Below are positions 1,206 to 56,342 of a DNA stretch of 64,000 bases, in pieces. The first letter of the stretch is position 1; each line of letters starts with the position of its first letter. Source of the DNA: Megaustenia siamemsis (lineage: Eukaryota > Mollusca > Gastropoda > Stylommatophora > Ariophantidae); assembly GCA_032433765.1 (NCBI GenBank), contig JAVIAB010000101.1, positions 67,292,640-67,356,639 on the forward strand, given 5' to 3'. The notes below the pieces were generated by a model, which saw nothing but the letters and a program-made list of their open reading frames with translations, ran no database searches and was not told where the DNA came from. A program made the position numbers and the translations under genes.

Positions 1206-1226
1206 GATCTGTTAGAAGAATATTTA
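1206..1226 (+). CDS. Putative micro-exon, 21 bp (DLLEEYL)
   Basis: A pyrimidine-rich tract ending in AAAACAG is followed by 21 bp and then the donor GTAAGT. Phase 0 reads DLLEEYL; phase +1 has a stop. It is one of a same-strand series of candidate micro-exons with symmetric 0-0 phase. The protein is not recognised. The sequence shows only splice signals and frame; that it is an exon is inference. Confidence 0.5.
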
Positions 1227-1539
1227 GTAAGTCAACATATCCTGACTTTACAATATCATGTTCTTCTAGTACAATGATTTACATTAATTTAAATATCGAT
1301 TTCATATTTTCTTTCTCTCTTTTGACTTGCCCTAATAGAAAATCTGGACATATCATTAAAACGTTTGTTGAAATTAAAATCATACATTTCTCTTCTATGT
1401 CTTTCTTTAGTTTGGGAAGTGCCAAACCGCAGTCTGTGTATTCCCATATCCTCTATTTCGCACGTTCCCTCAACTATCAACGTTTGTATCTACTTATTGT
1501 TTATATCCTGCAGTGACTAAACGTTCCGTGTTCTTTCTC

Positions 1540-2575
1540 GATGAAGATAATTTGCTTGTGTGTGTGTCCTTCCTGTCGATGAAGATAATTTGATTGTGTG
1601 TGTGTCCTTCCTGTCGATGAAGATAATTTGCTTGTGTCTGTGTCCTTCCTGTCGATGAAGATAATTTGATTGTGTGTGTGTATTTCCTGTCGATAAAGAT
1701 AATTTGCTTGTGTGTGTCCTTCCTGTCGATGAAGATAATTTGCTTGTGTGTGTGTCCTTCCTGTCGATGAAGATAATTTGATTGTGTGTGTGTCCTTCCT
1801 GTCGATGAAGATAATTTGCTTGTGTGTGTGTCCTTCCTGTCGATGAAGATAATTTGATTGTGTGTGTGTATTTCCTGTCGATAAAGATAATTTGCTTGTG
1901 TGTGTCCTTCCTGTCGATGAAGATAATTTGATTGTGTGTGTGTATTTCCTGTCGATAAAGATAATTTGCTTGTGTGTGTCCTTCCTGTCGATGAAGATAA
2001 TTTGATTGTGTCTGTGTCCTTCCTGTCGATGAAGATAATTTGATTGTGTGTGTGTCCTTCCTGTCGATGAAGATAATTTGTTTGTATCTGTGTCCTTCCT
2101 GTCGATGAAGATAATTTGCTTGTGTGTGTCCTTCCTGTCGATGAAGATAATTTGCTTGTGTGTGTCCTTCCTGTCGATGAAGATAATTTGCTTGTGTGTG
2201 TCCTTCCTGTCGATGAAGATAATTTGCTTGTGTGTGTCCTTCCTGTCGATGAAGATAATTTGCTTGCGTGTGTCCTTCCTGTCGATGAATATAATTTGCT
2301 TGTGTGTGTCCTTCCTGTCGATAAAGATAATATGCTTGTGTGTGTCCTTCCTGTCGATGAATATAATTTGCTTGTGTGTGTCCTTCCTGTCGATAAAGAT
2401 AATATGCTTGTGTGTGTCCTTCCTGTCGATAAAGATAATATGCTTGTGTGTGTCCTTCCTGTCGATAAAGATAATATGCTTGTGTGTGTCCTTCCTGTCG
2501 ATGAAGATAATATGCTTGTGTGTGTCCTTCCTGTCGATGAAGATAATATGCTTGTCTGTGTCCATCTCTCTAAAG
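1540..2575. repeat. Minisatellite, 36-bp unit (38/40-bp variants), about 28 copies
   Basis: The unit contains CCTTCCTGTCGATGAAGATA followed by a (GT)n stretch whose length changes set the 36, 38 or 40 bp period. Because 36 is divisible by three and the unit lacks stops in several frames, long false ORFs run through it on both strands (a 12-residue DTHKQIIFIDRK repeat on minus). No gene is supported. Confidence 0.95.
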
Positions 2576-2581
2576 TTTAAA

Positions 2582-2935
2582 CATTTTCGATAAAGATAAT
2601 TTGCTTGTTTGTGTCCATCTCTCTAAAGTGTAAAAATGTTCGATAAAGATCATTTGTTTGTTTGTGTAATTTTTCGATAAAGATAATTTGTTTGTTTGTG
2701 TCATTTTTCGATAAAGATAATTTGTTTGTTTGTGTCATTTTTCGATGAAGATAATTTGTTTGTTTGTGTCATTTTTCGATAAAGATAATTTGTTTGTTTG
2801 TGTCATTTTTCGATGAAGATAATTTGTTTGTTTGTGTCATTTTTCGATAAAGATAATTTGTTTGTTTGTGTCATTTTTCGATGAAGATAATTTGTTTGTT
2901 TGTGTCATTTTTCGATGAAGATACTTTGCTTGCGT
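2582..2935. repeat. Minisatellite, 35-bp unit, about 10 copies
   Basis: The unit CGATAAAGATAATTTGTTTG plus TTTGTGTCATTTTT shares its CGATRAAGATAATTTG core with the adjacent 36-bp array, so this looks like a diverged sub-block of the same array in which the CCTTCCTG part was replaced by a T-run. Confidence 0.9.
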
Positions 2936-3026
2936 GTGTCCTTTGTGTTGTCACGTTGTACCATTTCTCAAACATATGGGTTATTCTCCGCCCCGTTTAG
3001 TCATTCTATCTAAAGTGCAAACATCA

Positions 3027-3371
3027 CTGAGGTAAAGGTAAAGGTAAAGTACGAGACTTGAACACGCGTCTTAGCACGCGAGATTCCACCCATATGTACT
3101 CGGCCGCCTATCCAGAAATGTTTGGAGATTTCTGGATAGTGTCGCTTCAAGCATCGAAACTCACGATGCGATGCGACATTCCTCACCTTCCCAGGGTAAC
3201 ACCCTGGTACCCATTTCTGCCAACGGCTGGGTCAACCGTTAGAGTATTTTTTTTCCGACCACGAGTACAATTCACACTTCTCCCAGCGGGAATCGAACAC
3301 GGGTTGTCCGAACGTTGGTAGTCCAGTCGGGTGGTTTTCCCAACTAGGCTACCGAAACCCCCCCCCCCCCC
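3027..3371 (-). mobile_element. tRNA-derived SINE, family A (copy 1)
   Basis: The minus strand starts with a tRNA-like head. The A box is TAGCCTAGTTGG and the B box GTGTTCGATTCC, followed by a shared body (CGGCCGCCTATCCAGAA on plus) and a (TTTACC)n tail. Three more copies lie at 48166, 48999 and 59440. A 15-C run abuts the head at 3358-3372. Confidence 0.85.
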
Positions 3372-3654
3372 CACCCAATGTCTTTCGTGTTGTCACGTTC
3401 TACCATTTCTCAAATATATGGGTTATTCTACTCCCTGTTTAGTCCTTCTTTATAATGTGCAAACATCACTGAGTTAACTTTTAGGAAATTGCCTCGTGTT
3501 ATTTTTTAATTGCATATTTTTTTCTGTAAAATATAGCTTTTACTTATTTGCTTTTAGTCGATCTTCTTCCTCTTATACTTCTTTCATGCCCCATAAGCTT
3601 TTCAGTTTTGATATATGTTTTCTTGTTTCTAGCTCATTTGTTGGGCTACAACTG

Positions 3655-3920
3655 TAGAAACCCGAAAGTAAAGAACCCCGTCGCGCCAATTGGCGTGTAG
3701 GGAATATGGTGTTAGCGGCCATACATGTTACAGACCTTCAGCACATGTTTGTGGGGGTAATGTGGTGGTAAAAACGCCCGTGACGTTTTAATTTCCCAGA
3801 AACAAATCCGGTGCTCAATTAAGGCTGGGGGAACCCGGAGGTCGTCGGTTGGGTTCGAACCCTACCTCTTGTCCTTTGTAGTCCAGTTCAAAAACCACTG
3901 TGCTATCGCGGCTCCCTATA
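3655..3920 (-). mobile_element. tRNA-derived SINE, family B (copy 1)
   Basis: Minus-strand head GGGAGCCGCGATAGC leads into a B box GGTTCGAACCC. The body matches the copy at 25550-25807 and ends in the same ACTTTACTT-type tail. It is degenerate. Confidence 0.8.
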
Positions 3921-6049: not shown

Positions 6050-6067
6050 AAATTACCCAAGATAACT
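6050..6067 (+). CDS. Putative micro-exon, 18 bp (KLPKIT)
   Basis: Acceptor TTATTTATTTCAAATAG, then 18 bp, then donor GTAAGC. Phase 0 reads KLPKIT; phase +1 contains TAA. It belongs to the same + strand micro-exon series. Confidence 0.4.
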
Positions 6068-13640: not shown

Positions 13641-14342
13641 CACTTCAATGAAGTGAAGAGCATGATTGATATCTCTGCCGAAAGTGACAAATCCACGATT
13701 CGCGTTTTCTTGTTTTAATGCAGAAGGCAGAACGTCAACGGATTGTGAGTTAATATTTGCTCATTTTCCCAAAGCACATTTTGTTTCCGCTATTTTATTT
13801 TCAGGCAAACAAAAATACATTACTTTAATATTTATTTGCGTTTTCTTTCTTTCCTTAGTTAATTCTTCTCATAATATAACATTTATAACAATACAAATTA
13901 ACAACACATATTACAATACAACTATACATACGAAAAAGACATGGAGATGAGAAGGGGAATCAAATAGACTACACAATGATAAAAGATAGGGTCCGTAACT
14001 GTGTAAAGAAAGCCAAAACCTATCCAAGAGCAGATATTAACTCAGATCTCAATTCTGTAATGATAAGAATGAAGGTCACAATAAAGATAAACACACAAAA
14101 GACTAATTCATCAACAATATCACCAGACATAACAGCATGAAATAAAAAAGATGCTGGTACAATAAAAGCAAAGAACATTTATCAGAAGCTGCTATAAGAA
14201 GTGATTGAGCGGTACAGAAGAGAAAAACCGATGCTGAAGTTACACCCAAACGGTAATGCATGAAGAAAAGCATACATTAAAAGCGCGACATCGTAACCAA
14301 AAATGAAACGAAAAAAAAATGGATAGGTGACATCATGTAGAT

Positions 14343-17193: not shown

Positions 17194-17215
17194 GCACAAA
17201 AAAAAAAGGATTCTA
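17194..17215 (+). CDS. Putative micro-exon, 22 bp with a 10-A run (possible indel)
   Basis: Acceptor TTTCTTTTCCAACAG and donor GTGAGT frame 22 bp that contain a run of ten A. At 22 bp it breaks the multiple-of-three pattern. A one-base homopolymer error or a real indel would explain this; without one A it would be 21 bp. The downstream intron start GTGAGTTAATATTTC resembles that of 29336-29356, which suggests duplicated exons. Confidence 0.35.
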
Positions 17216-19838: not shown

Positions 19839-19859
19839 AGGAAGGATCGAAAAAGTAAA
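19839..19859 (+). CDS. Putative micro-exon, 21 bp (RKDRKSK)
   Basis: Acceptor TTATATCTTCAACAG, 21 bp, donor GTGAGT. Phase 0 reads RKDRKSK; phase +2 has a stop. The exon and the start of the following intron (GTGAGTTAC) resemble 24089-24112, so the two look like duplicates. Confidence 0.5.
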
Positions 19860-24088: not shown

Positions 24089-24112
24089 TGGAGAGAAGAT
24101 CGAAAGCGTCAA
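24089..24112 (+). CDS. Putative micro-exon, 24 bp (WREDRKRQ)
   Basis: A weak acceptor (TGACTCTTTAAAG) is followed by 24 bp and a good donor GTGAGT. Phase 0 reads WREDRKRQ. Similar to 19839-19859 in exon and intron start. The true 3' splice site may have been lost or shifted. Confidence 0.35.
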
Positions 24113-27385: not shown

Positions 27386-28710
27386 AATCATTGTTAAGAT
27401 CCCAAAAAAGGGCAATCTTAGAGAATGAAACAACTGGAGGGGCGTGACACTTTTGTCAGTTGCCTCAAAGTTATTCTGCAAAATCATCCTAAATAGAATA
27501 AAGGATTCAATAGATACAGTAATGCGGGAAGAACAGGCTGGGTTTAGAAAAGGGAGAAGCTGCCTTGACCACATTTTCACTCTACGACTTATATTGGAGG
27601 AACACATTGAAAAGCAAAAACCTTTTGTACTTAACTTCATCGACTTCACAAAAGCATTTGATAGTATTCAAAGAGATTCGTTGTGGAGAATTCTGAAGCA
27701 ATATGGCTTACCATCAAAAATCATAAATATTATCAAAGACATGTATGCTGGTTACATATGTGCAGTTCGAACAGAGGAAGGACTGAGCGAATGTTTCCCA
27801 ATAGAAACTGGGGTTAAACAAGGATGTATTTTATCGCCCTTGTTATTTGGAATTGTTATGGACTTCATAATGAAGAAATGCTGCACTGGTAATAAAGGCA
27901 TCGAATGGATACAAGGAGACCATTTGGAGGACCTCGACTTTGCTGATGACATAGTTCTCATCAGCAGTCAGATAAAAATGATGCAGGAAAACACAAATGA
28001 ACTATCATCAATAGCCAGCAAAATTGGGCTTGAGATCAATCATGAAAAGACTAAAGTCATGAAAAGTTTAATTCCAACAGATGACAAAATATACATGGAA
28101 AACAAACCAGTAGAAGAGATCGATCACTTTATCTACCTTGGAAGTCACATTGATCGAGAGGGGTATACAAGTAAAGAAATTACAATCAGAATAGCTAAAG
28201 TAGCGATGTCTTTCAGAAGCCTTGAAAACTTGTGGAAATCAAAACTCATCATCACAAACACAAAACTAAGACTATTCAAATCGAATGTACTATCAACCCT
28301 TACGTATGCGTGTGAAAGCTGGAAAACAACAAGAGATACAGAAACAAAGTTGAACGCATTCGAAAATAAATGTCTAAGGAAAATACTTGGTATAGCATGG
28401 AACGAATTCAAAACAAACGAGGAAATTAGAGAAATCGCCAATCAACCAATAATATCTTCAGTAATAAAGAAAAGACGAATGTCATATGTTGGACATGTGA
28501 TGAGAAGAGATAATAATCGAATAGCAAAGCAAGCCCTCATATGGGAAACAAAAGGTAAGAGGAAAAGAGGAAGACCCAGGGAGACACTGAGAAGAACATT
28601 GATGAGAGAGGCAAGAGCAACAGGATTCGGCTCCCTCAATGAGATAGAGCTGCTTGCACAGAACAGAGACAAATGGCGAGATTTGATAACATATCTTTAA
28701 AAGAAAACTG
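27386..28710 (+). mobile_element. RTE-like LINE (family 5), RT nearly intact, 5'-truncated
   Basis: The frame starts at KIPKKGN with one in-frame stop near 27427, then is open 27444-28700. It has RT fingers (EEQAGFRKGRSCLDHIFTLR), motif A FIDFTKAFDSI, motif B GVKQGCILSPLLF, catalytic LDFADDIVLIS, KTKVMK, and a thumb/C-terminal region ending GKRKRGRPRE and RDKWRDLI. No endonuclease remains. It is the best-preserved RT in the window by length; activity is excluded by the missing 5' half. Confidence 0.95.
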
Positions 28711-29135: not shown

Positions 29136-29335
29136 AATAATATAATAATTTTTTTTTCTCGAAAATACCTTTTTTTTAAAATTGCTATTAAATAAAAATA
29201 AATTGTATGTTCTGCACTTGGTTACGTTTACAACATAAAATAATGCTTGAATAATTGAAACAAGCACATATCATCTTTAATAAAATTCATCCAAACATGT
29301 TTTTTATGTGTTTTCCTCTACTTCTTTTATTGCAG

Positions 29336-29356
29336 AAAACAGTAGAAGAGCTTAAC
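29336..29356 (+). CDS. Putative micro-exon, 21 bp (KTVEELN)
   Basis: Strong acceptor CTACTTCTTTTATTGCAG, 21 bp, donor GTGAGT. Phase 0 reads KTVEELN; both other phases hit stops. One of the best candidates in the series. Confidence 0.55.
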
Positions 29357-30149: not shown

Positions 30150-32165
30150 AGTATGTGTTAGCACTCGGATTTATCATTCCTTACCCGGCCTCAAATATAC
30201 ACACTTTGTATATGTTACCTAGGATCCACAAACCTTGCTTTCCCAGCAAATGTACAGTCTTTGCTTGCTCATGTCCAACTTTTCACGTTTGGGCTACGTG
30301 GACATCGCCATCCAATTTGTTGTTCTACCATCTTTCGTTAAGGACACTAACTACATCCAACTTGTTGTTCTACCATCTTTCGTTAAGGACACTAACTACA
30401 TCCAACTTGTTGTTCTACCATCTTTCGTTAAGGACACTAACTACATCCAACTTGTTGTTCTACCATCTTTCGTTAAGGACACTAACTACATCCAACTTGT
30501 TGTTCTACCATCTTTCGTTAAGGACTCTAACTACATCCAACGTGTTGTTCTACCATCTTTCGTTAAGGACACTAACTACATCCAACTTGTTGTTCTACCA
30601 TCTTTCGTTAAGGACACTAACTACATCCAACTTGTTGTTCTACCATCTTTCGTTAAGGACTCTAACTACATCCAACGTGGTGTTCTACCATCTTTTGTTA
30701 AGGACACTAACTACATCCAACTTGTTGTTCTACCATCTTTCGTTAAGGACTCTAACTACATCCAACTTGTTGTTCTACCATCTTTCGTTAAGGACTCTAA
30801 CTACATCCAACGTGTTGTTCTACCATCTATCGTTAAGGACACTAACTACATCCAACTTGTTGTTCTACCATCTTTCGCTAAGGACACTAACTACATCCAA
30901 CTTGTTGTTCTACCATCTTTCGTTAAGGACACTAACTACATCCAACGTGTTGTTCTACCATCTTTCGTTAAGGACACTAACTACATCCAACTTGTTGTTC
31001 TACCATCTTTCGTTAAGGACTCGAACTACATCCAACGTGTTGTTCTACCATCTTTCGTTAAGGACACTAACTACATCCAACTTGTTGTTCTACCATCTTT
31101 CGTTAAGGACACTAACTACATCCAACTAGTTGTTCTACCATCTTTCGTTAAGGACTCTAACTACATCCAACGTGTTGTTCTACCATCTTTCGTTAAGGAC
31201 TCTAACTACATCCAACTTGTTGTCCTACCATATTTCGTTAAGGACACTAACTACATCCAACTTGTTGTTCTACCATCTTTCGTTAAGGACTCTAACTACA
31301 TCCAACTTGTTGTTCTACCATCTTTCGTTAATGACTCTAACTACATCCAACTTGTTGTTCTACCATCTTTCGTTAAGGACTCTAACTACATCCAACTTGT
31401 TGTTCTACCATCTTTCGTTAAGGACACTAACTACATCCAACTTGTTGTTCTACCATCTTTCGTTAAGGACACTAACTACATCCAACTTGTTGTTCTACCA
31501 TCTTTCGTTAAGGACACTAACTACATCCAACTTGTTGTTCTACCATCTTTCGTTAAGGACACTAACTACATCCAACTTTTTGTTCTACCATCTTTCGTTA
31601 AGGACTCTAACTACATCCAACGTGTTGTTCTACCATCTATCGTTAAGGACTCTAACTACATCCAACGTGTTGTTCTACCATCTATCGTTAAGGACTCTAA
31701 CTACATCCAACTTGTTGTTCTACCATCTATCGTTAAGGACACTAACTACATCCAACGTGTTGTTCTACCATCTATCGTTAAAGACACTAACTACATCCAA
31801 CTTGTTGTTCTACCATCTATCGTTAAGGACTCTAACTACATCCAACTTGTTGTTCTACCATCTTTCGTTAAGGACACTAACTACATCCAACTTGTTGTTC
31901 TACCATCTATCGTTAAGGACTCTAACTACATCCAACGTGTTGTTCTACCATCTTTCGTTAAGGACACTAACTACACCCCATATTCGTTCCTTGATCTGAT
32001 AAAACTACAACCATTTTTAGATTTGGATGTCTGCTCCTTCTACACTTCTATACACCAGAAAATGACCTTCTGGCTCTCCAGTTCTTCTTGGATCAGAGAA
32101 ACTAACCCTTGGTCCCTACCTCTGCCCTTATTCGTCAGGCGGGACTGGTATTGACCCTCAACGCA
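30150..32165 (+). mobile_element. Penelope-like element RT relic inflated by a tandem array
   Basis: Left of the array the frame reads LYMLPRIHKP (near 30206) and ACSCPTFH, the LPKIHKP and SACSCPT blocks of Penelope-like RTs. A frameshift follows, then YVDIAIQFVVLPSFVKDT. Right of the array come YSFLDLIK, FLDLDVCSFYTSI (motif A type) and, after a frameshift, ENDLLALQFFLDQRN (from 32058), then LVLTLN (near 32150). The order fits a PLE RT, with the 45-bp unit (one LVVLPSFVKDTNYIQ segment) multiplied in place. Frameshifts and a stop make it non-functional. The PLE assignment is from motif recognition. Confidence 0.8.
30318..31975 (+). repeat. Minisatellite, 45-bp unit, about 37 copies, derived from PLE RT
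   Basis: Unit CTTGTTGTTCTACCATCTTT plus CGTTAAGGACACTAACTACA and TCCAA. All copies keep the 45-bp length, so the RT frame stays open throughout. Variation is mainly ACT/TCT, CTT/CGT and TTT/TAT at fixed sites. Confidence 0.97.
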
Positions 32166-32828: not shown

Positions 32829-32864
32829 GAAGAAAAGAGAAATTTGGCATATCTAATTCCAGAG
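32829..32864 (+). CDS. Putative micro-exon, 36 bp (EEKRNLAYLIPE)
   Basis: Acceptor GGTTTGCATTTCTAG, 36 bp, donor GTAAAT. Phase 0 reads EEKRNLAYLIPE; phase +1 has TAA. The longest of the series. The following intron to 33169 is only about 300 bp. Confidence 0.45.
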
Positions 32865-33168: not shown

Positions 33169-33189
33169 ATTGTGGCGTCAGCAACATTT
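33169..33189 (+). CDS. Putative micro-exon, 21 bp (IVASATF)
   Basis: Acceptor AATTGTTCTACTTCAG, 21 bp, donor GTAAGTAAC. Phase 0 reads IVASATF. Related in sequence to 34870-34899 and 24983-25006 (shared ATTGT start or CAGCAACATT end). Confidence 0.55.
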
Positions 33190-33354: not shown

Positions 33355-33815
33355 TTTGCAGGCTTCTATACAGACCGATCTGTAATACGACACCAAAGGA
33401 GTGCATGGACGTTTGCACCACGCTCGACAGGCAGAATAGTCGATGAAGTCGGTTGTGCATACGTTATGACCACGAGCAACGTTAAGATTGAGGTGATGGC
33501 AGTGATCAGGGCATTCTTCTTGTTAGAGTCACAAAACTACACCCACTCCTGTTTTGTCATTGATTCGAAGATTGTGATAAAAAAAACGAAGAGGCGCGCT
33601 CTTTACGCAGGCAATGGGTAGAGTCACTGCAGACATCAACAATACGTCACCTTATCTACGTCACTGGATATGCGAGAATACTGCGAAATGAAAGAGTAGA
33701 TAGGTTGGCTAGCTGCGCTATCGTAGAGGACAGTCAACCAACGGAACAGGTGGACATCATCAATGCCCTCCGATATGTGGGAAGGGTACATGGCTTCGCC
33801 AGCGTCTGATGACGA
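33355..33815 (+). mobile_element. I/Nimb-like LINE fragment, RNase H region
   Basis: FYTDRSVIRHQRSAWTF, TTSNVKIEVMAVIRAF and a frame-shifted NERVDRLA follow the RNase H order of the 6752-8046 element. The DGS motif reads DRS. It runs up to the end of the EGF-like exon on the opposite strand. Confidence 0.85.
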
Positions 33816-33824
33816 TAAATAACA

Positions 33825-34125
33825 ACCCAGGAGAACGGAAAAGATTGATTGAGAGTTGACCCAACTGATGTAGAATCTGTGTCCGGATTAAATGTGGTGT
33901 TGTTGTTATCAAACAGGAAAGTAGGTTCAGATTTTTGGACGTATTTGTAAACGAGATCCAAGTACTGACACTGGGGTCCAAAATATCCGTGCTGACAACT
34001 GTCATTGTTTGGGCATGTCCCTGTAGTTTTGTCACAAACTAAGCCATTATAGCAGTGACATTGTAACGTACAATTTGCCCCAAACCAACCGTCTGCACAA
34101 GTTAGGTCATTAGCTTCCATATAGA
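33825..34125 (-). pseudogene. EGF-like exon of a gastropod-style receptor or fucolectin-like protein (possibly decayed)
   Basis: The minus strand reads NDLTCADGWFGANC, then two further Cys-rich EGF-like loops (CHCYNGLVC, TGTCPNNDSC, GYFGPQCQYLDL) and a beta-rich segment (FLFDNNNTTFNP). Eight Cys are visible. A 3' splice site TTTTTATAG precedes it at 34126-34134. This Cys/Gly layout is common in gastropod EGF and lectin-like proteins, from memory of the family. The 3' side meets LINE sequence near 33825 with no convincing donor, so the exon may be truncated. It could also be a live exon of a gene on the minus strand. Confidence 0.6.
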
Positions 34126-34530
34126 CTATAAAAACCCGCATTTAGAAAACAAAAATCTGCATTTAGAACATGAAAATACGCATTTAGAAAATGAAAACAC
34201 TTTATTTAGAACATGAAAACGTGCATTTAGACCATAAAAACCCGCATTTAGAACACAAGAATCTGCATTTAGAAAATGAAAACCTGCATGTAGATCATGA
34301 AAACCTGCATTTAGAACATGAAAACACACATTTAGAACATGAAAACGTGCATTTGGACCATAAAAACCCGCATTTAGAACATACGTAGCTGCATTTAGAC
34401 CATAAAAACCCGCATTTAGAACATACGAATCTGCATTTAGAAAATGAAAACCTGCATTTAGAACATGAAAACCTGTATTTAGAACAGGAAAACCTGCATT
34501 TAGAACATGAAACACTGCATTTTTGTGGCA
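34126..34530. repeat. Minisatellite, 21-bp unit, about 19 copies
   Basis: Unit CATTTAGAACATGAAAACCT plus G. The 21-bp period gives open heptad frames on both strands (LEHENLH on plus). The copy next to the EGF-like exon overlaps its 3' splice site. Confidence 0.95.
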
Positions 34531-34869: not shown

Positions 34870-34899
34870 ATTGTAGATACTATTCGTAATCAAAGCATT
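34870..34899 (+). CDS. Putative micro-exon, 30 bp (IVDTIRNQSI)
   Basis: Acceptor TTTAATGACTTTCCAG, 30 bp, donor GTAAGTAAT. Phase 0 reads IVDTIRNQSI; both other phases contain stops. The start ATTGT and end CATT echo 33169-33189. Confidence 0.55.
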
Positions 34900-39964: not shown

Positions 39965-40384
39965 TGTATTTGACATAGTTTGGATACCTACCATCGCTCA
40001 TTCTTCACAGCTAACTCATTCGTTATAAATGTCGTAACAATTCTTCTAATTTCTTCATGAACAAGTGTATCCTCTCACATGACAGTTTAACACTACAGAA
40101 GATCCAACTCTACCTCTTAGTCAGCATTTGCTAAATTATTCAATGATATCTAAAGATGAATTTAATAACCACCGATTTTTTTTCTACTAAGAGTGCTCAA
40201 TGAACTTACACACCGAGACCTTAAAACTGACTGGATGTATATAAGTTTTTCATGGATTAATTCTATCTTTGATGAAAATACCTAGGACACATGCATAACT
40301 TTATGCAGCAAACGATTGATACAATTATAAATAAACATAATAAAACTATCTGTGCAAGTAGATATGGCGTGGTTACATTTATTT

Positions 40385-41045
40385 GTACCGCTCTTTTCCT
40401 TGCTTTACTGATGCAGGATGGCATAGGCTAAGCTGTTAATCTTTTGAAGTTTCTCTTTCATTTTAGTCTTGGTCGGCATCTGTCTCTTTTACCTTGTATT
40501 TTCCCTCCCAATATTACTTACAGTAGATTGGTGTGTCTTTTAACATGATCTAAGAACCGATTTGTCGTGTTTCAATTGTTTCAATTTTATCTGTTTTAAG
40601 AATCCATAGTTTCTTTTATTTGTGTCCTTTCAATTCTTCCTATTCTTCTATAAATTCATATTTCAAAGGCTTCTATTTTCTGTTCTGTTTTCTTGTCTAA
40701 TGTCCATGTTTCTGCGCCATATAGACATGTTGAGAAGATATAACATTTTGTTATTCTTAGTTTTAGCCCTGGTGTTATTTGCCTTGATAATAGTATATTT
40801 TTCACGACACTAACATTGCTTATTGCCATTCCAATTCTTTTGTTTATTTCTGTTTTTCATTTTCCATCACTGGTTATATAGTATGTCCAAAGCATTTCAG
40901 TCTTTGAAATGTCTTCACGTGTATTCCTTCCACTTTTATATCCACTTTTAGGTTCTGCGTATTATCTTTGTTTATGATAATAGTTTTATTGTTTTTTTAT
41001 CTTTATCTAGTCCGCAACCTTTACAAGTCATGTTTCGTTTCATTA
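40385..41045 (-). mobile_element. RTE-like LINE fragment (family 1), in duplication unit 1
   Basis: Minus-strand match to 20650-21260 with many indels; FEMWIYRRIGR-equivalent near 40640. Confidence 0.8.
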
Positions 41046-41085
41046 ATTAATCTAAGTTACACTGATGCTATTATATTACTAACAG

Positions 41086-41106
41086 GAAATCGAGAAACCA
41101 ATTAAC
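41086..41106 (+). CDS. Putative micro-exon, 21 bp (EIEKPIN), duplication copy 1
   Basis: Acceptor TTATATTACTAACAG, 21 bp, donor GTAAGG. Phase 0 reads EIEKPIN; phase +2 hits TAA. Its duplicate at 45081-45101 differs at five positions, all changing the amino acid. Confidence 0.55.
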
Positions 41107-41309
41107 GTAAGGTTGTTAATGTTGTAATGGGATTTTGGCATTGGCATGTATGAAAACATATCTCTCCCTGTTTTATCAGGGCCCACCATTCAACCAATCT
41201 TATCTACTATGAACTAATACATAATTGCAGGTACAAGCGATTAGAGTGCAGACCCCAGTTCCTTTAGTGTTTGTAATTGTTATTGTCTTTAATGGGAAAG
41301 CGTACACAC

Positions 41310-42420
41310 GTCAATGGAAGAATCTCTTCGTATTCGAGCAGGAGAAGGACTTTTTTTCTGCGGAGACTTGAATGCTAGAGAAAACCAGTGGGGTAATGTC
41401 ATAACCAATACGCAAAAAGAAGACCTAGAGAACTGACTAGTGTCGGCAGACTAAGTGTGATTGATTGATGAAAGGGCATCATGAGCTCAACACAGGGAAG
41501 GGTGTCAGGATAAAAAAGAGACAAATCATGGGTGGGACGAGCAGAAGTTTCATCAAACAAGTCTGTGGGCTTACCAATATCAACGTTGCCGATGAGTGGA
41601 TACCAGTTCCCACGTCATTCAAGGGGGGGGGGGACATTTTCGTGTTTTATCACACTCGACAGGAAATATAGGGAGCAGAACTCAGTCGTGGTCAATGCGG
41701 AGGTCAACAGTCTCATCTGCGTTAACACCAATGAGACTGATGTTATAATCTATACATACGGATCTGTAATACGACACCAAAGGAGTGCATGGGCATTTAC
41801 AGTACACTCAGCAGGTAGATTCGTCATGAAGGGCAGTGGAGCATACTTTATCGACCACGAGTATCATGACGATGGAGGTGATGGCAGTGACCAAGGCATT
41901 CATCTGGTTAGAGTCACAAGACTATATCCACGCATGTATACTGCATTCGATGAGCATAATAAGAAAAGTGGAGGCGGGCAATGTACGTATGTAATCGGAG
42001 GAATCAATGCAGAAGTAAAAAATACGCAATGGACACCTTTGTTTGCGTCCCATGACATGCGAGAGTACATCCAATGAAAGAGCGGACAGGCTGGCTAGCT
42101 GGGCTATTGTTGAGGACGGTGAACCAATGGATAGGGTCAAACATCATCAATATCCTCTATGAAGTGGGAAGGACAAAGGACTTCGACCACCATTAGTCCA
42201 CGTGACTCCGTCGGATGAAAATGATGGGAGTTAGGATGGGCACAGCCAGAAACGAGAAATTTAGGGGCCGTGTAAGAGGACTTATTAACGAACACAAAGC
42301 CGGAGTCGTCAGTCCCTGGACACTGCGAGACTTGTTTAGGAGGAGATTTGAGCACCTATGGACATGTTCGGAGTGCCATACTGATGACCCGCTAATAATT
42401 CAATAACAAAAACAATAACA
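41310..42420 (+). mobile_element. I/Nimb-like LINE, internally deleted (EN joined to RNase H), unit 1
   Basis: Endonuclease piece FFCGDLNARENQWGN (near 41350) is followed within 100 bp by the post-RT region (KQVCGLTNINVADEWIPVP near 41560), so the RT is deleted. RNase H follows with the first catalytic Asp changed (YTYGS). Ends in CAATAACAAAAACAATAAC. Confidence 0.85.
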
Positions 42421-42429
42421 ATATCAAGT

Positions 42430-44280
42430 TTGATATTTGCCCTAGTTGTTTTGTTACTTCTGTAAATATACAATATTGTGTTTACTGTCTTCTGTGCATT
42501 GAACTTTAGTTTCCATGCAATACACTAGTCTTCTAAGCGTTTGAGATCTTTATTTAGTTGTGATTCTGCTATCTCAATTTTTGCGCTGTTATGCCAGATT
42601 ACTAGATCATCGGTATAAAATATTTGTGGCATTAATCATGGTTTAGGCCAGGTCCTTTATGTACAATAAAAAAGAGGGAGCACTTAAGTGGTGATCCCTG
42701 TGGTAGCTACTTCTAGAATCTATTTGTCTGATATAGAGTCATTTAATTTGTTTTAAAAAGCCCTGTTGATTAGGATGATTTCGACCCATGTGTACAATTA
42801 GTCATGTAATCCAACGTCTCTCATCTTCAACAGGAGTCCTTACCGACAGACTAGATTGTAGACTTGTTGCACAAGTCAACTATGATGGCTAAAGTGTGTA
42901 GTCTCTGTCAGACAAGATCGTATACTTGTTGCACAAGTAAACTATGACGGGTAGAGTGTGTTGTTTCTGTCAGACTAGATCGTATACGTGTTGCACAAGT
43001 CAACTATGACGGCTAAAGTGTGTAGTTTCTGTCAGACTAGATCGTATACGTGTTGCACAAGTCAACTATGACGGGTAGAGTGTGTTGTTTCTGTCAGACT
43101 AGATCGTATACTTGTTGCAGAAGTCAACTATGACGGGTAAAGTGTGTTGTTTCTGTCAGACTAGATCGTATACTTGTTGCACAAGTCAACTATGACGGGT
43201 AAAGTGTGCTGTTTCTGTCAGACTAGATCGTATACTTGTTGCACAAGTCAACTATTATGGCTAGAGTGTGTTGTTTCTGTCAGACTAGAGCGTATGCTTG
43301 CTGTACATGTCGAAAATGACGGCTAGAGTGTGTAGTTTCTGACAGACTAGATCGTATACTTGCTGTACAAGTCAACTATGACGGCTAGTGTGTGTTGTTT
43401 CTGTCAGACTAGATCGTAGGCTTCTTGTACAAGTCAACTATGACGGGTAGAGTGTGTTGTTTCTGTCAGACTAGATTGTATACTTGTTGCACAAGTCAAC
43501 TATGACGGGTAAAGTGTGTTGTTTCTGTCAGACTAGATCGTATACTTGTTGCATAAGTCAACTATTATGGCTAGAGTGTGTTGTTTCTGTCAGACTAGAG
43601 CGTATGCTTGCTGTACAAGTCGAAAATGACGGCTAGAGTGTGTAGTTTCTGACAGACTAGATCGTATACTTGCTGTACAAGTCAACTATGACGGCTAGTG
43701 TGTGTTGTTTCTGTCAGACTAGATCGTATACTTGCTGTACAAGTCAACTATGACGGCTAGTGTGTGTTGTTTCTGTCAGACTAGATCGTATGCTTGCTGT
43801 ACAAGTCAACTATGACGGCTAGTGTGTGTTGTTTCTGTCAGACTAGATCGTATGCTTGCTGTACAAGTCGACTATGACGGCTAGTGTGTGTTGTTTCTGT
43901 CAGACCAGATCGTATGCTTGCTGTACAAGTCGACTATGACGGCTAGTGTGTGTTGTTTCTGTCAGACCAGATCGTATGCTTGCTGTACAAGTCGACTATG
44001 ACGGCTAGTGTGTGTTGTTTCTGTCAGACTAGATCGTACACTTGCTGTAGAAGTTGACTATGATGGCTAGTGTGTTTCTTCTGGAATCCACCACGGACTT
44101 GCTGCATTAACGTGAATATTTTATTCTTCTACTTTATTACCTGCAATAAATCCAGCAAGTTCAGTTCATGGCACATATTATTTGAGGCTTCTAAATACCA
44201 TTCTAGTCTGTTGTTGACCATACCCTCAGCACTTTGTCCTTTCAGGTCAAATGTGGCGATGTAAAGGCGTTATCAAGGAA
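42430..44280 (-). mobile_element. RNase H-type LINE RT fragment split by a 62-bp array, unit 1
   Basis: The minus strand reads, from the right, NNRLEWYLEAS and FIAGNKVE (fingers), then motif A AVIVDL, the array, YNLVCR, GLLLKMRDVGLH, a degenerate LPQG region and the catalytic FYTDDLVIWH, then KDLKRLED and WKLKFNAQK. The order is that of a single RT domain. Stops and frameshifts are frequent. Confidence 0.85.
42840..44075 (-). repeat. Minisatellite, 62-bp unit, about 20 copies, derived from LINE RT motif A
   Basis: Unit GACTAGATCGTATACTTGCT plus GTACAAGTCAACTATGACGG and CTAGTGTGTGTTGTTTCTGTCA. On minus each unit carries AVIVDL ... VYDLV. A higher-order period of 310 bp (5 units) is seen from the CGAAAATGAC variant at 43311 and 43621. 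Confidence 0.95.
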
Positions 44281-44389
44281 GCTAGAGAAGTTGCATAACT
44301 TTATGCAGCAAACGACTGATACAATTATAAATAAACATAATAAAACTATTTGCGCAAGTAGATATGGCAGGTTACATTTATTTGTACCG

Positions 44390-45040
44390 CTCTTTTCCTT
44401 GCTTTACTGGTGCAGGTTGGCATAGGCTATGCTGTTAATCTTTTGAAGTTTCTCTTCCATGTTAGTCTTGGTCGGCATCTGTCTCTTTTATCTTGTATTT
44501 TCCATTCCAATATTACTTACAGTAGATTGGTGTGTCTTTTAACATGCTCTAAGAACCGATTTGTCTTGTTTCAATTGTTTCATTTTTATCTGTTTTATGA
44601 ATTCATCTTTTCTTTTATTTGTATCCTTCCAATTCTTCATATACTTCTATAAATTCATATTTCAAAGGCTTCTATTTTCTGTTCTGTTTTCTTGTCTAAT
44701 GTCCATGTTTCTGCGCCATATAGAAATTTGAGAAGATATAACATATTGTTATTCTTAGTTTTAGCCCTGGTGTTATTTGCCTTGACAATAGTATATTTTT
44801 CATGACACTAACATTGCTTATTGCCATTCCTATTCTTTTGTTTATTTCTGTTTTTCATTTTCCATCACTGGTTATATAGTATGTCCAAAGCATTTCAGTC
44901 TTTGAAATGTCTTCACGTGTATTCCTTCCACTTTTATATTCACTTGTAGGTTCTGCGTGTTATCTTTGTTTATGATAATAGTTTTATTGGTTTTTTTTTA
45001 TTTAGTCCGCAAACTTTACAAGTCATGTTTCGTTTCATTA
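44390..45040 (-). mobile_element. RTE-like LINE fragment (family 1), in duplication unit 2
   Basis: Duplicate of 40385-41045. Confidence 0.8.
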
Positions 45041-45080
45041 ATTAATCTAAGTTACATTGATGCTATTATATTACTAACAG

Positions 45081-45101
45081 GGAAACGACAACCCAAATAA
45101 C
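45081..45101 (+). CDS. Putative micro-exon, 21 bp (GNDNPNN), duplication copy 2
   Basis: Same acceptor as copy 1; donor GTAAGT. Phase 0 reads GNDNPNN. Compared with EIEKPIN only Pro and the last Asn are kept, while acceptor, donor and flanking intron are almost unchanged. Confidence 0.55.
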
Positions 45102-45289
45102 GTAAGTTTGTTAATGTTGTTATGGGATTTTGGCATTGACATGTATGAAAACATATCTCTCTCCCTGTTTCATCAGGGCCCACCATTCCGCCTATCTTAT
45201 CTACTATGAACTAATACATAATTGCAGGTACAAGCGATTAGAGTGCAGACCCCAGTTCCTTTAGTGATTGTAGTTGTGTATGTCTTAAT

Positions 45290-46397
45290 GGGAAAGCGTA
45301 CACATGTCAATGGCAGAATCTCTTCGTATTCGAGTATTTTTCTGGGGAGACTTGAATGCTAGAGAAAACCAGTGGGGTAACGTCAAAACCAATACGCAGG
45401 AAGAAGACCTAGAGAACTGACTAGTGTCGGCAGACTAAGTGTGATTGATTGATGAAAGGGCATCATGAGCTCAACACAGGGAAGGGTGTCAGGATAAAAA
45501 GAGACAAATCATGAGTGGGACGAGCAGAAGTTTCATCAAACAAGTCTGTGGGCTTACCAATATCAACGTTGGCGAAGAGTGGATACCGGTTCCCACGTTA
45601 TTCGGGGGTGGGGGGGGGCATTTTCGTGTTTTATCACACTCGTCAGGAAATATAGGGAGCAGAACTCAGTCGTGATCAATCCGGATTTTAACGGCCTCAT
45701 CTGGGTTAACACCGATGAGACTGATGCTGTCATCTATACATGCGGATCTGTAATACGACACCAAAAGAGTGCATGGGTATTTACAGTATACTCAGCAGGT
45801 AGAATAGTCATGAAGGACAGTGGAGCATACTTTATGACCACGAGTAGCATGACGATGGAGGTGATGGCAGTGACCTAGGCATTCATCTGGTTAGAGTCAC
45901 AAGACTACATCCACGCATGTATACTGAGTGATTCGATGAGCATGATAAGAAAAGTGGAGGCGGGCTCTGTACGTATGCAGTGGGTAGAGTCAGTGCAGAA
46001 GTAAAAAATACGTAATGGTCACCTTTATCTGTGTCCCAGGACATGCAAGAGTACGTCCAATGAAAGAGCGGACCGGCTGGCTAGCTATTGTTGAGGACGG
46101 TGAACCAATAGATAGGGTCAAACATCATCAAAGTCCTCCATGAAGTGGGAAGGACAAAGGACTTCGACCACCATTAGTCCACGTGACTCCGTCGGCTGAA
46201 AGTGATGGGAGTTAGGATGGGCACAGCCAGAAACGAGAAATTTAGGGAGCATGTAAGAGGACTTATTAACGAACACAAAAACCGGAATCGTCCGTCCCTG
46301 GACACTGCGAGACTTGTTTAGGAGGGGATCTGAGCACCTATGGACATGTTCGGAGTGCCTTACTGATGACCCGCTAATAATTCAATAACAAAAACAA
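45290..46397 (+). mobile_element. I/Nimb-like LINE, internally deleted, unit 2
   Basis: Duplicate of 41310-42420 with the same EN-to-post-RT deletion. The first RNase H Asp is changed to Cys here (YTCGS). E and the second D (SMTMEVMA, LSDSMS) are still visible. Confidence 0.85.
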
Positions 46398-46399
46398 TA

Positions 46400-47645
46400 A
46401 CAATATCAAGTTTGATATTTGCCCTAGCTGTTTTGTTACTTCTGTAAATATACAATATTGTGTTTACTGTCTTCTGTGCTTTGATCTTTAGTTTCCAGGT
46501 ATTACACTATTCTTCTAATCGTCTGAGATCTTTATTTAGTTGTGATTCTGCTATCTTAATGTTTGCGCTGTTATGCCAGATAACTAGGTCATCGGTATAA
46601 AATATTTGTGTTATTAATCATGGTTTAGGCCAGGTCCTTTATGTACAATAAAAAAGAGGAAGCAGTTAAGTGGTGATCCCTGTGGTAGCCACTTCTAGAA
46701 CCTATTTGTCTGATATAGAGTCATTTAATTTGTTTTAAAACGCCCTGTTGATTAGGATGTTTTCGACCCATGTGTACAATTAGTCATGTATTCCAACGTC
46801 TCTCATCGTCAACAGGAGTCCTTACAGACAGACTAGATCGTATGCTTGCTGTACAAGTCAACTATGACGGCTAGAGTGTGTAGTTTCTGTCAGACTAGAT
46901 CGTATGCTTGCTGTACAAGTCAACTATGAAAGCTAGTGTGTGTAGTTTCTGTCAGACTAGATCGTGTGCTTGCTGTACAAGCCAACTATGACGGCTAAAG
47001 TGTGTTGTTTCTGTCAGACTAAATCGTATGCTTGCTGTACAAGTCAACTATGACGGCTAAAGTGTGTAGTTTCTGTCAGACTAGATCGTATGCTTGCTGT
47101 ACAAGTCAACTATGACGGCTAAAGTGTGTAGTTTCTGTCAGACTAGATCGTATGCTTGCTGTACAAGTCAACTATGACGGCTAGTGTGTGTTGTTTCTGT
47201 CAGACTAGATCGTATACTTGCTGTACAAGTCAACTATGACGGCTAGTGTGTGTAGTTTCTGTCAGACTAGATCGTATACTTGCTGTACAAGTCAACTATG
47301 ACGGCTAGTGTGTGTTGTTTCTGTCAGACTAGATCGTATACTTGCTGTACAAGTCAACTATGACGGCTAGTGTGTGTAGTTTCTGTCAGACTAGATCGTA
47401 TACTTGCTGTACAAGTCAACTATGACGGCTAAAGTGTTTCTTCTGGAATGCACCACGGACTTGCTGCATTAACGTGAATATTTGGTCTTCTACTTTATTA
47501 CCTGCAATAAATCCAGCAAGTTCATGGCACATATTATTAGAGGCTTCCACATACCAATCTAGTCTGTTGTTGATCATACTCTCAGCACTTTGTCCTGTCA
47601 GGTCAAATGTGGCGATGTAAGGGCGTTATCAAGGAAGCTAAAGAA
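46400..47645 (-). mobile_element. RNase H-type LINE RT fragment split by a 62-bp array, unit 2
   Basis: Duplicate of 42430-44280; GLLLTMRDVGIH-like and the degenerate catalytic block are visible on minus. Confidence 0.8.
46815..47430 (-). repeat. Minisatellite, 62-bp unit, about 10 copies (unit 2)
   Basis: Same unit as 42840-44075, more homogeneous. Confidence 0.95.
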
Positions 47646-48097: not shown

Positions 48098-48127
48098 ATT
48101 TTAGCTACGTTGGCAGGAATGACGGCG
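48098..48127 (+). CDS. Putative micro-exon, 30 bp (ILATLAGMTA)
   Basis: Acceptor AATATCTTCTTAG, 30 bp, donor GTAAGTATT. Phase 0 reads ILATLAGMTA; phase +1 has TAG. Later AGs at 48104 and 48116 are alternative acceptors. Start and acceptor resemble 54159-54188. Confidence 0.45.
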
Positions 48128-51975: not shown

Positions 51976-52239
51976 GGTAGAAGAGGAAGAAGATACATAT
52001 TTAAAAAGCTGTAATTATTTGGATAACATTTGCGCATTCAGGAAAAATGTGTCAGTGATTTTACATGCAAATATCACAAGAAAACATATGTCCTCATTGT
52101 TGCAAAAAAAAAGTGTATTATAATGCGCAATATACTATTTTCTCTATAAGATGCGTTGGACTATACATGATGTAAGTATTAAAATAAACTATGTATTGTC
52201 TGTCAAGAGAACATTAGTCTCTTTGCATAGTGAAAGTGA

Positions 52240-53840: not shown

Positions 53841-54158
53841 AAATGCCAAATATTTCAGTGTTGTACGAAATACCTACATTTGCGAACAACTTGATATGAG
53901 CAAATGATTGTGTAAATTGGTCTACATATCACTGTTCGTTAATGGTTTGATTATCCCCATCGCGCATCGAACAAGATCTTCCCAGAGAGAAAAGATAAAC
54001 TGTTTTACAGGTCTTCTCACATTCTCTACGTAGCTCTCATAAACTCAGGCTACACCCATTTTTATCAAGGAGTGTGAACATGGATTATGGAATAACGTTT
54101 CACTTATTTCGTCAACAAAACATTTCTTTTCAAACTGAAAACATTTATATCCTCTTAG

Positions 54159-54188
54159 ATTTACAAATATTCACATTCTACTGAACTT
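54159..54188 (+). CDS. Putative micro-exon, 30 bp (IYKYSHSTEL)
   Basis: Acceptor TTTATATCCTCTTAG, 30 bp, donor GTAAGT. Phase 0 reads IYKYSHSTEL; phase +2 ends in a stop. Confidence 0.55.
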
Positions 54189-54599
54189 GTAAGTAAAATA
54201 ATCAAGAACTCAAGTAAATCAGATATCAAATAATGGCATAAATATAAAACAAATTGTTATTTCTTGTTGTTTTGTATCATGTGATGTTATCTATTATTAA
54301 GAATAACTGTTTATCTCTCATGCATATATTAAAGAAGATATTACTGGCGTGCGTGAAAAAAAACAAAACACAAATATTGTATCACCAACAGTCCGATTCC
54401 ATGACAACAAACTAGATAACTATAGTACTATGAGATCAGTATATGTTGAGATTAACGATACAAGTTATGTCAGAATGTCCCCGAGAGAACTACTTAATCT
54501 GACTTAACAACCCTCAGTTTACACAAATACTACTGTCGGCATATCTATAGGCAGTATATTGCGTATATATGTAGGTAGTGTTGCCAGTATTATCGTTTA

Positions 54600-54695
54600 G
54601 ATTTATATTGCATCAGATTTATATTGCATCAGATTTATATTGCATCAGATTTATAATGCATCAGATTTATAATGCATCCGATTTATAAAGCATCA
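54600..54695. repeat. Minisatellite, 16-bp unit, 6 copies
   Basis: ATTTATATTGCATCAG with terminal copies mutated to ATAATGC and ATAAAGC. Confidence 0.93.
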
Positions 54696-55009
54696 TACAT
54701 TTATTATGAATATATAAAACAATGTGTAAGACAAGATTGTTCTCTCTCGGTGGATATGCTAACACTTTATTGAGAAAATAGTAGACAACATTAGATGAAA
54801 CCAACGGTCGCAACATAAGCTGCGATATACGGATGGCTCAGTCTCAGTAGCAGAGACAAATAATTAACTACAAGAAAAGAAAAACATAATAGTAAAAATA
54901 CAACAAAAAAGTTTCAGTGTGAATAGCAATATCACATACGTAACGGTTATATAAAAGAAACAATCATCACCACAATACAACATACAAATGAATAGGACAT
55001 ATCTGAAAC

Positions 55010-55604
55010 AAGTGCAACGCGTCAAATACTTGGGCACAATAATACCATTAGATGGAAAATTCAACACAGAAATGTAAAGTAGAATATCTTAGGCCAAAAT
55101 AGCATTTAAAAAAATGAAAAACATATTTTGCTATAAATCTATGTGAAAAGACCTCGGAAAGTAATTCATCGATGATATATCATGCCAATTTTATATAATC
55201 GATTAATGAATTGTAGGCAAACAAATGAAAAGATGATTAGAGACCACGGAGATGCGATTTCTCAAAATAATTCTGAGTGTTCCTTTGACAATTAGAAAGA
55301 TCAACGAGGAAATTCTAAAAATTAAAAAAAAACGAACACACCAAGTGAGCTACTTTAAAAACGTAAGAAAAAACGCAATGAACATTTTTTTCTGGGACAT
55401 CACGAGAAGAGGAAAATTGTAATACTTGGTTACATCTGTCAAAATACAGGGAAAGAGAGATCGCGGACGATAAAGAAAGAAAATACAAGATAGCTTCGTG
55501 TCATCGCATGGAAAACAAACAAGAGAATTGATACGATGCCATGTGGACAGGCTATTGTGGAAGAACATGATCGCCCATGACAACCTGTATGGCACATGAT
55601 GATG
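55010..55604 (+). mobile_element. RTE-like LINE 3' fragment (family 3), degenerate
   Basis: QRVKYLGTIIPLDGKFNTEM near 55020, KQMKR-LETTEMRFLK near 55220, and the 3' end ACCTGTATGGCACATGATGATG. Many stops. Confidence 0.8.
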
Positions 55605-55770
55605 CTGATGTGATGTTTCCCTACGAAACCGTTGTAGACTACACCAAGTGAATTACACATGATGATGCTGATATGATGTTTCTATACGAAACCGTTGTAG
55701 ACTACGCCAAGTGAACTACACATGATGTTGCTGATATGATGTTTCTCTACGAAACCGTTGTAGACTACAA
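55595..55770. repeat. Tandem repeat, 62-63 bp unit, 3 copies, starting at an RTE tail
   Basis: GAAACCGTTGTAGACTAC recurs at 55625, 55687 and 55750. The unit begins with ACATGATGATGCTGATATGA, i.e. with the RTE 3' terminus. Confidence 0.9.
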
Positions 55771-56081
55771 GTGCAAGTGAGCTTAGATTTCTGGGGACAC
55801 AACTACAGATTCTTAACGTCAATTCTGAATAACTTCTGATTTGAGTTCTGTTTGACACAAGACCAATCCCGTACAGAAAGGGAGAAACAATTATTGGATT
55901 TATATAATCGCGCTTACTACACTATAGCCAGCGTGTAACAAGATCTAGAACAGTCCACTATATCACCAAAAACTATTTGAATATCTCAGAATGTCTTTGA
56001 CTGTTGTTTGAGGTGTGGTGTATTTTTTGTGCAGTCAATGATTTCATTATATAAACATATTTTACTTATTTTCATTCGTAG

Positions 56082-56108
56082 AATACCTATCGAAAAAAAA
56101 TAGCAGTG
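56082..56108 (+). CDS. Putative micro-exon, 27 bp (NTYRKKIAV)
   Basis: Acceptor ACTTATTTTCATTCGTAG, 27 bp, donor GTAAGT. Phase 0 reads NTYRKKIAV; phase +1 hits TAG. The next candidate follows after a 213-bp intron. Confidence 0.5.
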
Positions 56109-56321
56109 GTAAGTAAAATGAATCAAGATGTTAAAGAAAGATAAGAACTACTAACATAAACTGTGACATGTTAAATACACATTTGTTTTCGTTACCACGA
56201 TAAAGATAATATACATAATACCTTACATTCTTCACTAGTCTCTTCAGTTTTTATAAATGAACGTTAATAGTTATGTTGAAAAAGAGTTATGTAAACTAAC
56301 ATCTGAAATGTTTTATTTTAG

Positions 56322-56342
56322 GCTGTAGAATTTGCTCGGCGT
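56322..56342 (+). CDS. Putative micro-exon, 21 bp (AVEFARR)
   Basis: Acceptor ATGTTTTATTTTAG, 21 bp, donor GTGAGT. Phase 0 reads AVEFARR; phase +1 has TAG. Confidence 0.5.

What the first reader, a model, noticed from the sequence alone, without database searches (positions are those of the whole stretch)
1206..56342. A dispersed + strand series of phase-0 micro-exons: a possible micro-exon gene spanning more than 55 kb
Seen: about 18 candidates of 18-36 bp, each bounded by an acceptor and a donor, all on the + strand. Positions are 1206, 6050, 17194, 19839, 24089, 29336, 32829, 33169, 34870, 41086, 45081, 48098, 54159, 56082 and 56322 (stronger), and 22201, 24983 and 39135 (weaker). Of the stronger fifteen, fourteen are multiples of three; most have a clear pyrimidine tract, though 24089 has a weak acceptor. 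All are open in phase 0, while phases +1 or +2 contain stops in most. Scanning the minus strand by eye for the mirrored pattern gave no comparable pair. Known: schistosome MEGs are built from such symmetric short exons. Inference: a micro-exon gene in this animal, probably a variable secreted product. Neither a signal-peptide exon nor a terminal exon is visible here.
Basis: partly seen in the sequence, partly recalled or inferred. Interest (0 to 1): 0.96.

Follow-up and report, generated by a model that had tools for sequence, protein, structure and literature searches.

The report
Micro-exon gene in a snail-like animal
One strand of this repeat-filled animal DNA carries a string of tiny, mostly frame-preserving, splice-bounded pieces well beyond chance and outside the repeats found; they are likely the micro-exons of one very long gene, predicted to build a protein from 6-12-residue blocks, an architecture known from parasitic flatworms and aphids that would be unexpected in the likely snail-like host.

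Summary
A plain rule scan finds 12 frame-preserving, phase-0-open pairs of 15-39 nt on the + strand (11 in the series), 1 on the minus strand, 2.6 in shuffles. After masking detected repeats (53% of the window), a scored scan gives 12 + strand pairs at S>=6: eleven reader candidates plus one it missed (13724-13744, KAERQRI). Eleven of the 12 are open multiples of three, against 0 on the minus strand and 0.78 in shuffles (0 of 400 reach 11). All 16 candidates lie outside detected repeats. Longer exons show no excess. In a tandem duplication, copies of one micro-exon differ at 5 of 21 bases, all amino-acid changing, against 5.8% elsewhere. Six micro-exons may be paralogous (mixed). The three 'weaker' candidates are unsupported. 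A real micro-exon gene is likely. Not shown: transcription, joining into one mRNA, secretion, variability. The host is weakly placed: an RT's best named hit is a land snail. Architecture resembles schistosome MEGs; membership is undecided. Eight searches of the host genome did not complete.

The parts
1206..1226 (+). micro-exon, 21 nt, DLLEEYL
   Evidence: S=13.5; resembles the GTGAGTTA group (next hit after the left-out member in 4 of 5 leave-one-out runs, E 0.0024 to 2.8)
6050..6067 (+). micro-exon, 18 nt, KLPKIT
   Evidence: S=7.2, donor GTAAGC
   Evidence: S=11.4, donor GTGAGTTA; leave-one-out profile E 1.1e-8
17194..17215 (+). candidate of 22 nt (A10 run), not frame-preserving as read
   Evidence: highest splice score of the window's + strand pairs, S=14.7; leave-one-out profile E 0.008
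19839..19859 (+). micro-exon, 21 nt, RKDRKSK
   Evidence: S=10.0; leave-one-out E 6e-5
24089..24112 (+). micro-exon, 24 nt, WREDRKRQ
   Evidence: S=8.5, acceptor ends AAG rather than YAG; leave-one-out E 1e-8
29336..29356 (+). micro-exon, 21 nt, KTVEELN
   Evidence: S=14.4; leave-one-out E 1.9e-6
32829..32864 (+). weaker micro-exon, 36 nt, EEKRNLAYLIPE
   Evidence: S=2.8, donor GTAAAT; individually unproven
33169..33189 (+). micro-exon, 21 nt, IVASATF
   Evidence: S=7.4
34870..34899 (+). micro-exon, 30 nt, IVDTIRNQSI
   Evidence: S=7.6
41086..41106 (+). micro-exon, 21 nt, EIEKPIN; copy 1 of a duplicated exon
   Evidence: S=4.7, donor GTAAGG; duplicate of 45081
45081..45101 (+). micro-exon, 21 nt, GNDNPNN; copy 2 of the duplicated exon
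   Evidence: S=6.2; 5 of 21 differences from copy 1, all nonsynonymous taken singly
48098..48127 (+). weaker micro-exon, 30 nt, ILATLAGMTA
   Evidence: strong donor GTAAGTAT, poor pyrimidine tract, S=2.7; a rival acceptor at 48105 scores 3.1
52151..52171 (+). tentative further micro-exon, 21 nt, MRWTIHD
   Evidence: S=4.3, acceptor ends AAG, donor GTAAGTAT; outside detected repeats
54159..54188 (+). weaker micro-exon, 30 nt, IYKYSHSTEL
   Evidence: S=3.9, donor GTAAGTAA
56082..56108 (+). micro-exon, 27 nt, NTYRKKIAV
   Evidence: S=12.1
56322..56342 (+). micro-exon, 21 nt, AVEFARR
   Evidence: S=6.5
40292..47437 (.). tandem segmental duplication (40292-43455 ~ 44292-47437) that duplicated one micro-exon
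   Evidence: 92% identity over 3171 aligned positions; 150 of 2530 mismatches in the part before the minisatellites

Best explanation
The + strand of the window carries 12 strongly scored splice-bounded stretches of 18-30 nt outside detected repeats, 11 of them multiples of three and open in phase 0, and these (with four or five weaker ones) are likely consecutive micro-exons of a single gene more than 55 kb long whose ends lie outside the window. Predicted mechanism: the exons are spliced across introns of about 0.2-7.7 kb into an mRNA that codes mostly in blocks of 6-12 residues. Because the blocks are consistent with starting and ending in phase 0 (all but 17194), each can be skipped, duplicated or swapped without breaking the frame, so alternative inclusion would likely yield many peptide mosaics, and exon duplication followed by fast divergence would add new blocks. 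Shown: splice signals, frame preservation, phase-0 openness, strand bias, repeat avoidance, one duplicated and diverged candidate. Inferred: that they form one transcript, that skipping is used, that the product varies or is secreted.
For: (1) Excess on the plus strand only. (2) In unmasked DNA all 12 + strand pairs with S>=6 belong to the series, 11 frame-preserving and open; minus strand 5 pairs, none frame-preserving. (3) 53.3% of the window is masked as repeats, yet all 16 candidates including 20-nt flanks are 0% masked; the duplicated pair is exempt from masking by construction, so 14 independent cases, 0.467^14 = 2e-5. Plus-strand pairs inside repeats at S>=6 are three (7862, 21053, 47602), two of them out of frame. 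(4) Phase 0 is open in 15 of 15 frame-preserving candidates, phase 1 in 7, phase 2 in 9. (5) 13724 was found by the scan, not chosen by eye. (6) No excess of longer exons: 40-60 nt, S>=6, plus 6 pairs with 0 open frame-preserving, minus 9 with 4; 40-300 nt, 23 of 106 plus pairs open in some phase against 22 of 72 minus pairs. (7) The duplicated exon diverged faster than its surroundings: 5/21 vs 145/2509, binomial P 0.006; vs 100-nt flanks, Fisher P 0.011. (8) Leave-one-out profiles of the five GTGAGTTA exons recover each left-out member as best non-training hit, E 1e-8 to 0.008; downstream flanks of the six resemble each other more than most six-exon subsets, 21 of 5005 reach the value.
Against: No transcript, relative or genome could be examined. 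The joined peptides gave no homologue (8 candidates, none at E<=10), which is weak since only proteins of about 67-212 aa were eligible. 17194 has the best splice score but is 22 nt, so its inclusion would shift the frame. Branch-point motifs are at most slightly above background: YTNAY in 11 of 16 vs 46%, P 0.056; CTRAY in 4 of 16 vs 11%, P 0.084. The paralogy of the GTGAGTTA group leans on the splice motifs: in leave-one-out with pieces, the intron side from +1 recovers 5 of 5 but at E 0.006 to 5.8, from +7 it recovers 0 of 5, and acceptor-plus-exon models give 3 of 5 at E 5.5-11, one of them off the modelled piece; the group was also defined after I saw its similar flanks. The diversification test is one exon pair, chosen after seeing it; 2.4% of windows diverge as much. 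No signal-peptide or terminal exon is seen.
Confidence: 0.72

Rival explanations
1. An ordinary very large gene with a micro-exon-rich segment (for example a structural, muscle or membrane-trafficking protein), whose tiny exons are included constitutively and whose larger exons lie outside the window. The product is fixed and intracellular; symmetry reflects exon duplication, not diversity.
For: The same gene anatomy fits; charged, cysteine-free blocks in the first half (17 K/R and 12 D/E of 54 residues, 0 Cys in 121) would suit a linker or coiled region. No convincing signal peptide seen.
Against: No normal-sized exon stands out in the window. The one duplicated exon changed faster than its surroundings, unlike a constrained structural block.
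Confidence: 0.2
2. Chance: acceptor-like and donor-like sites picked by eye from an A/T-rich sequence.
Against: The excess sits in frame-preserving open pairs (12 vs 2.6-2.7), is absent on the minus strand, grows after repeat masking (11 vs 0.78, 0 of 400) and lies outside detected repeats.
Confidence: 0.03
3. A flatworm micro-exon gene in the strict sense, the window being from a flatworm rather than a mollusc.
For: Architecture matches; Schistosoma reverse transcriptases are also among the listed hits of the window's RT (about 43% identity, best 120 of 2794 listed).
Against: The best named RT hit is the land snail Bradybaena similaris, 51% identity; an EGF-like fragment on the minus strand looks mollusc-like to me (recalled, not tested).
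Confidence: 0.05

Closest known systems
Schistosome and tapeworm micro-exon genes (MEGs); PMC5825161 (passages and one section read), PMC7653826 (passages read), PMC4015677 (passages read)
   Same: Runs of short symmetric exons (6-36 bp in schistosomes); frame-neutral skipping possible; creation of new MEGs by duplication and shuffling of micro-exons is proposed there (PMC5825161).
   Different: Host here is probably not a flatworm (weak evidence); no signal-peptide exon, expression or splice variants shown; no sequence link to MEG proteins (one homologue search of the joined peptides, no hits).
Aphid bicycle and megacycle genes; PMC9168663 (passages read)
   Same: Many tiny internal exons of one phase; 118 exons in about 100 kb in one megacycle gene; bicycle genes evolve fast.
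   Different: Aphid internal exons are almost all phase 2; these are open throughout only in phase 0. Bicycle proteins are recalled to carry a cysteine-pair motif; the 15 blocks here hold no cysteine.
Vertebrate triadin-type genes with many small symmetric exons (recalled, no call)
   Same: Long series of small frame-preserving exons coding charged linkers.
   Different: Exons there are longer on average (recalled), and the second half of this series is not highly charged (14 K/R/D/E of 67).

Membership tests
Micro-exon gene (MEG), flatworm sense | about 80% of the coding region in symmetric exons of 6-36 bp (PMC5825161) | tested here: inconclusive
   the 16 candidates are 18-36 nt and 15 of 16 are multiples of three, but the gene's ends are outside the window and no transcript is known
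Micro-exon gene (MEG), operational rule | >=7 exons, at least half micro-exons (<70 nt, divisible by three), runs of >=4 consecutive (PMC7653826) | tested here: inconclusive
   met by the predicted exons (11 strong ones; 17194 of 22 nt interrupts but leaves a run of 8 strong ones), not confirmed by a transcript
Micro-exon gene (MEG), flatworm sense | signal peptide or membrane anchor | tested here: inconclusive
   no convincing first exon in the window; it may lie upstream; membrane anchors not tested
Micro-exon gene (MEG), flatworm sense | protein variants by exon skipping | not testable with these tools
   needs RNA
Micro-exon gene (MEG), flatworm sense | found in parasitic flatworms | tested here: inconclusive
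Aphid bicycle/megacycle | almost all internal exons in phase 2 (PMC9168663) | tested here: not met
   phase 0 open in 15 of 15 frame-preserving candidates, phase 1 in 7, phase 2 in 9

The most novel reading that the evidence does not exclude
A gastropod independently evolved a MEG-type diversity gene: a giant gene of interchangeable phase-0 micro-exons, made by repeated exon duplication, whose blocks diversify faster than the surrounding introns and are mixed by cassette splicing to give a large repertoire of peptides, perhaps secreted.
Probability: 0.3. Interest if true: 0.87.

Novelty: new variant of a known kind. Interest (0 to 1): 0.63.

Why it matters
Micro-exon gene organisation has been listed as a proposed gain of parasitic flatworms (PMC4398949, one passage read, which itself cautions on the inference); aphid bicycle genes are another case (PMC9168663). 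A run of this kind in a likely mollusc would suggest that building proteins from tiny interchangeable exons arose again and is not tied to one lineage, and that standard annotation misses such genes because single exons are too short to call. It also gives exact exon coordinates that any RNA data set of the species can test at once. [quoted passage not shown] mansoni is unusual in the share of coding sequence they make up, and PMC7653826 that genes containing micro-exons occur throughout biology. My searches of the open-access library pairing micro-exon terms with molluscs, gastropods, snails or slugs listed no report of such a gene in a mollusc; I saw listings only, and parts of them (20 of 20 papers, 12 of 306, 2 of 2, 15 of 40, 1 of 1, 6 of 944).

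Tried and rejected
Branch-point enrichment: not significant. Longer coding exons: no excess over the minus strand. First and last exons: one signal-like hit at 29297 that reads through an acceptor tract, and four short terminal candidates after 56342 with no distinction (26 plus vs 39 minus acceptor-stop-polyA combinations in the window). A second exon family (33169, 34870, 48098, 54159, 56082, 56322): leave-one-out profiles gave E 0.93 to 7 for four members, 19 for 48098 and none among the listed hits for 56322, so I do not claim it. Micro-exons as parts of a transposon: rejected, none of the 16 overlaps a detected repeat, and the profile of the GTGAGTTA group has no other hit under E 1 in the window. 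Rfam: no match at gathering scores. Homologues of the minus-strand EGF-like frame: none. Relatives of the RT frame in genome contigs and of the RNase H frame in viral contigs: none. Paper searches gave context only; DeMarco 2010 is not held and is known to me by recall and through citing papers.
Full report
Observation. The fifteen 'stronger' stretches exist where stated. Fourteen are multiples of three; the exception, 17194, is 22 nt. All are open in phase 0. Of the three 'weaker' ones, 22201 has an in-frame stop and no good donor, 39135 has no good donor, and 24983 has a GTGTGT donor and a noise-level score.

Chance. Of the 12, 11 are in the series; the other (48914) is in a repeat. Twelve combinations of donor and tract setting were run; the plus strand exceeds its shuffles for open frame-preserving pairs in all of them, least at the loosest donor (GTRNG): 55 vs 26.6 at the lowest tract setting, 10 vs 4.5 at the highest. 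A scored scan (weights set by hand, after I had seen the candidates) at S>=6 gave 12 open frame-preserving pairs vs 2.7 in shuffles, 0 of 300 reaching 12, and 2 on the minus strand.

Repeats. Self-comparison, tandem-repeat calls and transposon frames mask 53.3% of the window (tandem repeats, frames). All 16 candidates (the fifteen plus 13724) are 0% masked including 20-nt flanks. The 41086/45081 duplication was exempted from the mask, so 14 cases are independent. In the unmasked 29 kb, at S>=6, the plus strand has 12 pairs, all in the series, 11 frame-preserving and open; the minus strand has 5 pairs, none of that kind; shuffles average 0.78, and 0 of 400 reach 11. At S>=10 it is 5 vs 0.06. 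Between S=5 and 6 the two further plus pairs (63008, 22119) are not in the series. Below S=5 single candidates cannot be told from noise: at S>=3 plus 15, minus 3, shuffles 3.2. For 48098 a rival acceptor scores slightly higher, and 32829 lay too near a mask edge to be scored there.

A missed exon. 13724-13744 (AAGGCAGAACGTCAACGGATT, KAERQRI) has a clear tract and a GTGAGTTA donor and was found by the scan. 52151-52171 is a tentative further one.

Exon relations. Five exons with GTGAGTTA donors (13724, 17194, 19839, 24089, 29336) form a profile that recovers each left-out member as the best non-training hit of the window, E 1.1e-8, 0.0081, 6e-5, 1e-8 and 1.9e-6; 1206 is next in 4 of 5 runs. 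Some in-register alignments reach beyond the exon, and downstream flanks from +9 are more alike within the group of six than in all but 21 of 5005 six-exon subsets (the group was defined after I saw its flanks). Against this, piecewise models are weak: intron side from +1, 5 of 5 at E 0.006 to 5.8; from +7, 0 of 5; acceptor plus exon, 3 of 5 at E 5.5-11, one off target. I call paralogy possible, not shown.

Diversification. Copies 41086 and 45081 lie in a tandem duplication. The exon differs at 5 of 21 positions, all changing the amino acid when taken singly (49 of 63 possible changes would be nonsynonymous without a stop), while the rest of the aligned copy differs at 145 of 2509; P 0.006 (binomial), 0.011 against 100-nt flanks, 0.0025 against 500-nt flanks. 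Length and the AG/GT bounds are kept in both copies, though copy 1 has donor GTAAGG. This is one pair, tested after seeing it, and 2.4% of windows diverge as much.

Product. Fifteen phase-0 blocks give 121 residues, 25 K/R, 18 D/E, no cysteine; the first half is highly charged, the second half less so. No convincing signal-peptide or terminal exon was identified. The joined chain has no homologue among proteins of eligible length.

Host. The window is a repeat-rich animal sequence with RT, RNase H and hAT frames. The RT at 27429-28700 has as best named hit Bradybaena similaris, a land snail, at 51% identity; the best hit of all, 61%, is unnamed; fishes, lancelets, a moth, a coral, Schistosoma and another gastropod (Batillaria) follow lower (best 120 of 2794 listed). 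A gastropod host is likely but not established.

Comparison. MEGs are described as genes with about 80% of the coding region in symmetric exons of 6-36 bp (PMC5825161), and operationally as genes of at least 7 exons, half of them micro-exons, in runs of at least four (PMC7653826). The predicted series fits the exon sizes and the run rule. Aphid bicycle and megacycle genes (PMC9168663) share the many-micro-exon layout but are phase 2, which this series does not fit. Works-like: MEG. Member-of: undecided, since secretion, splice variants and flatworm origin are untested or unsupported.

Verdict. A real micro-exon gene is likely (my estimate about 0.9 that most of the 12 strong stretches are true exons); the full mechanism statement gets 0.72; a secreted or otherwise diversity-generating gene in a mollusc gets 0.3.

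Noticed in passing
33802-34141, minus strand: EGF-like cysteine-rich fragment (CADGWFGANCTLQCHCYNG...) lying between a minisatellite and a LINE piece, between the 33169 and 34870 candidates, with no good splice donor found; probably a gene remnant.
   Followed up: partly
29297-29356, plus strand: An ATG upstream of the 29336 acceptor opens a frame MFFMCFPLLLLLQ-KTVEELN through the pyrimidine tract to the donor; could be an alternative signal-peptide first exon, or coincidence.
   Followed up: partly
40292-47437: Tandem 3.2-kb duplication at 92% identity holding LINE pieces, 62-bp minisatellites and one micro-exon per copy.
   Followed up: yes
61116-62961, plus strand: hAT-type transposase remnant split over three overlapping frames; only the last has a Pfam match.
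   Followed up: no
30309-31975 and 1538-2943: Minisatellites (45-bp and 36-bp units) that hold long open frames in more than one phase; likely artefacts of unit length divisible by three.
   Followed up: no
17194-17215, plus strand: The best-scoring micro-exon-like stretch has an A10 run and 22 nt, so it alone of the 16 is not frame-preserving; whether this is real is open.
   Followed up: no
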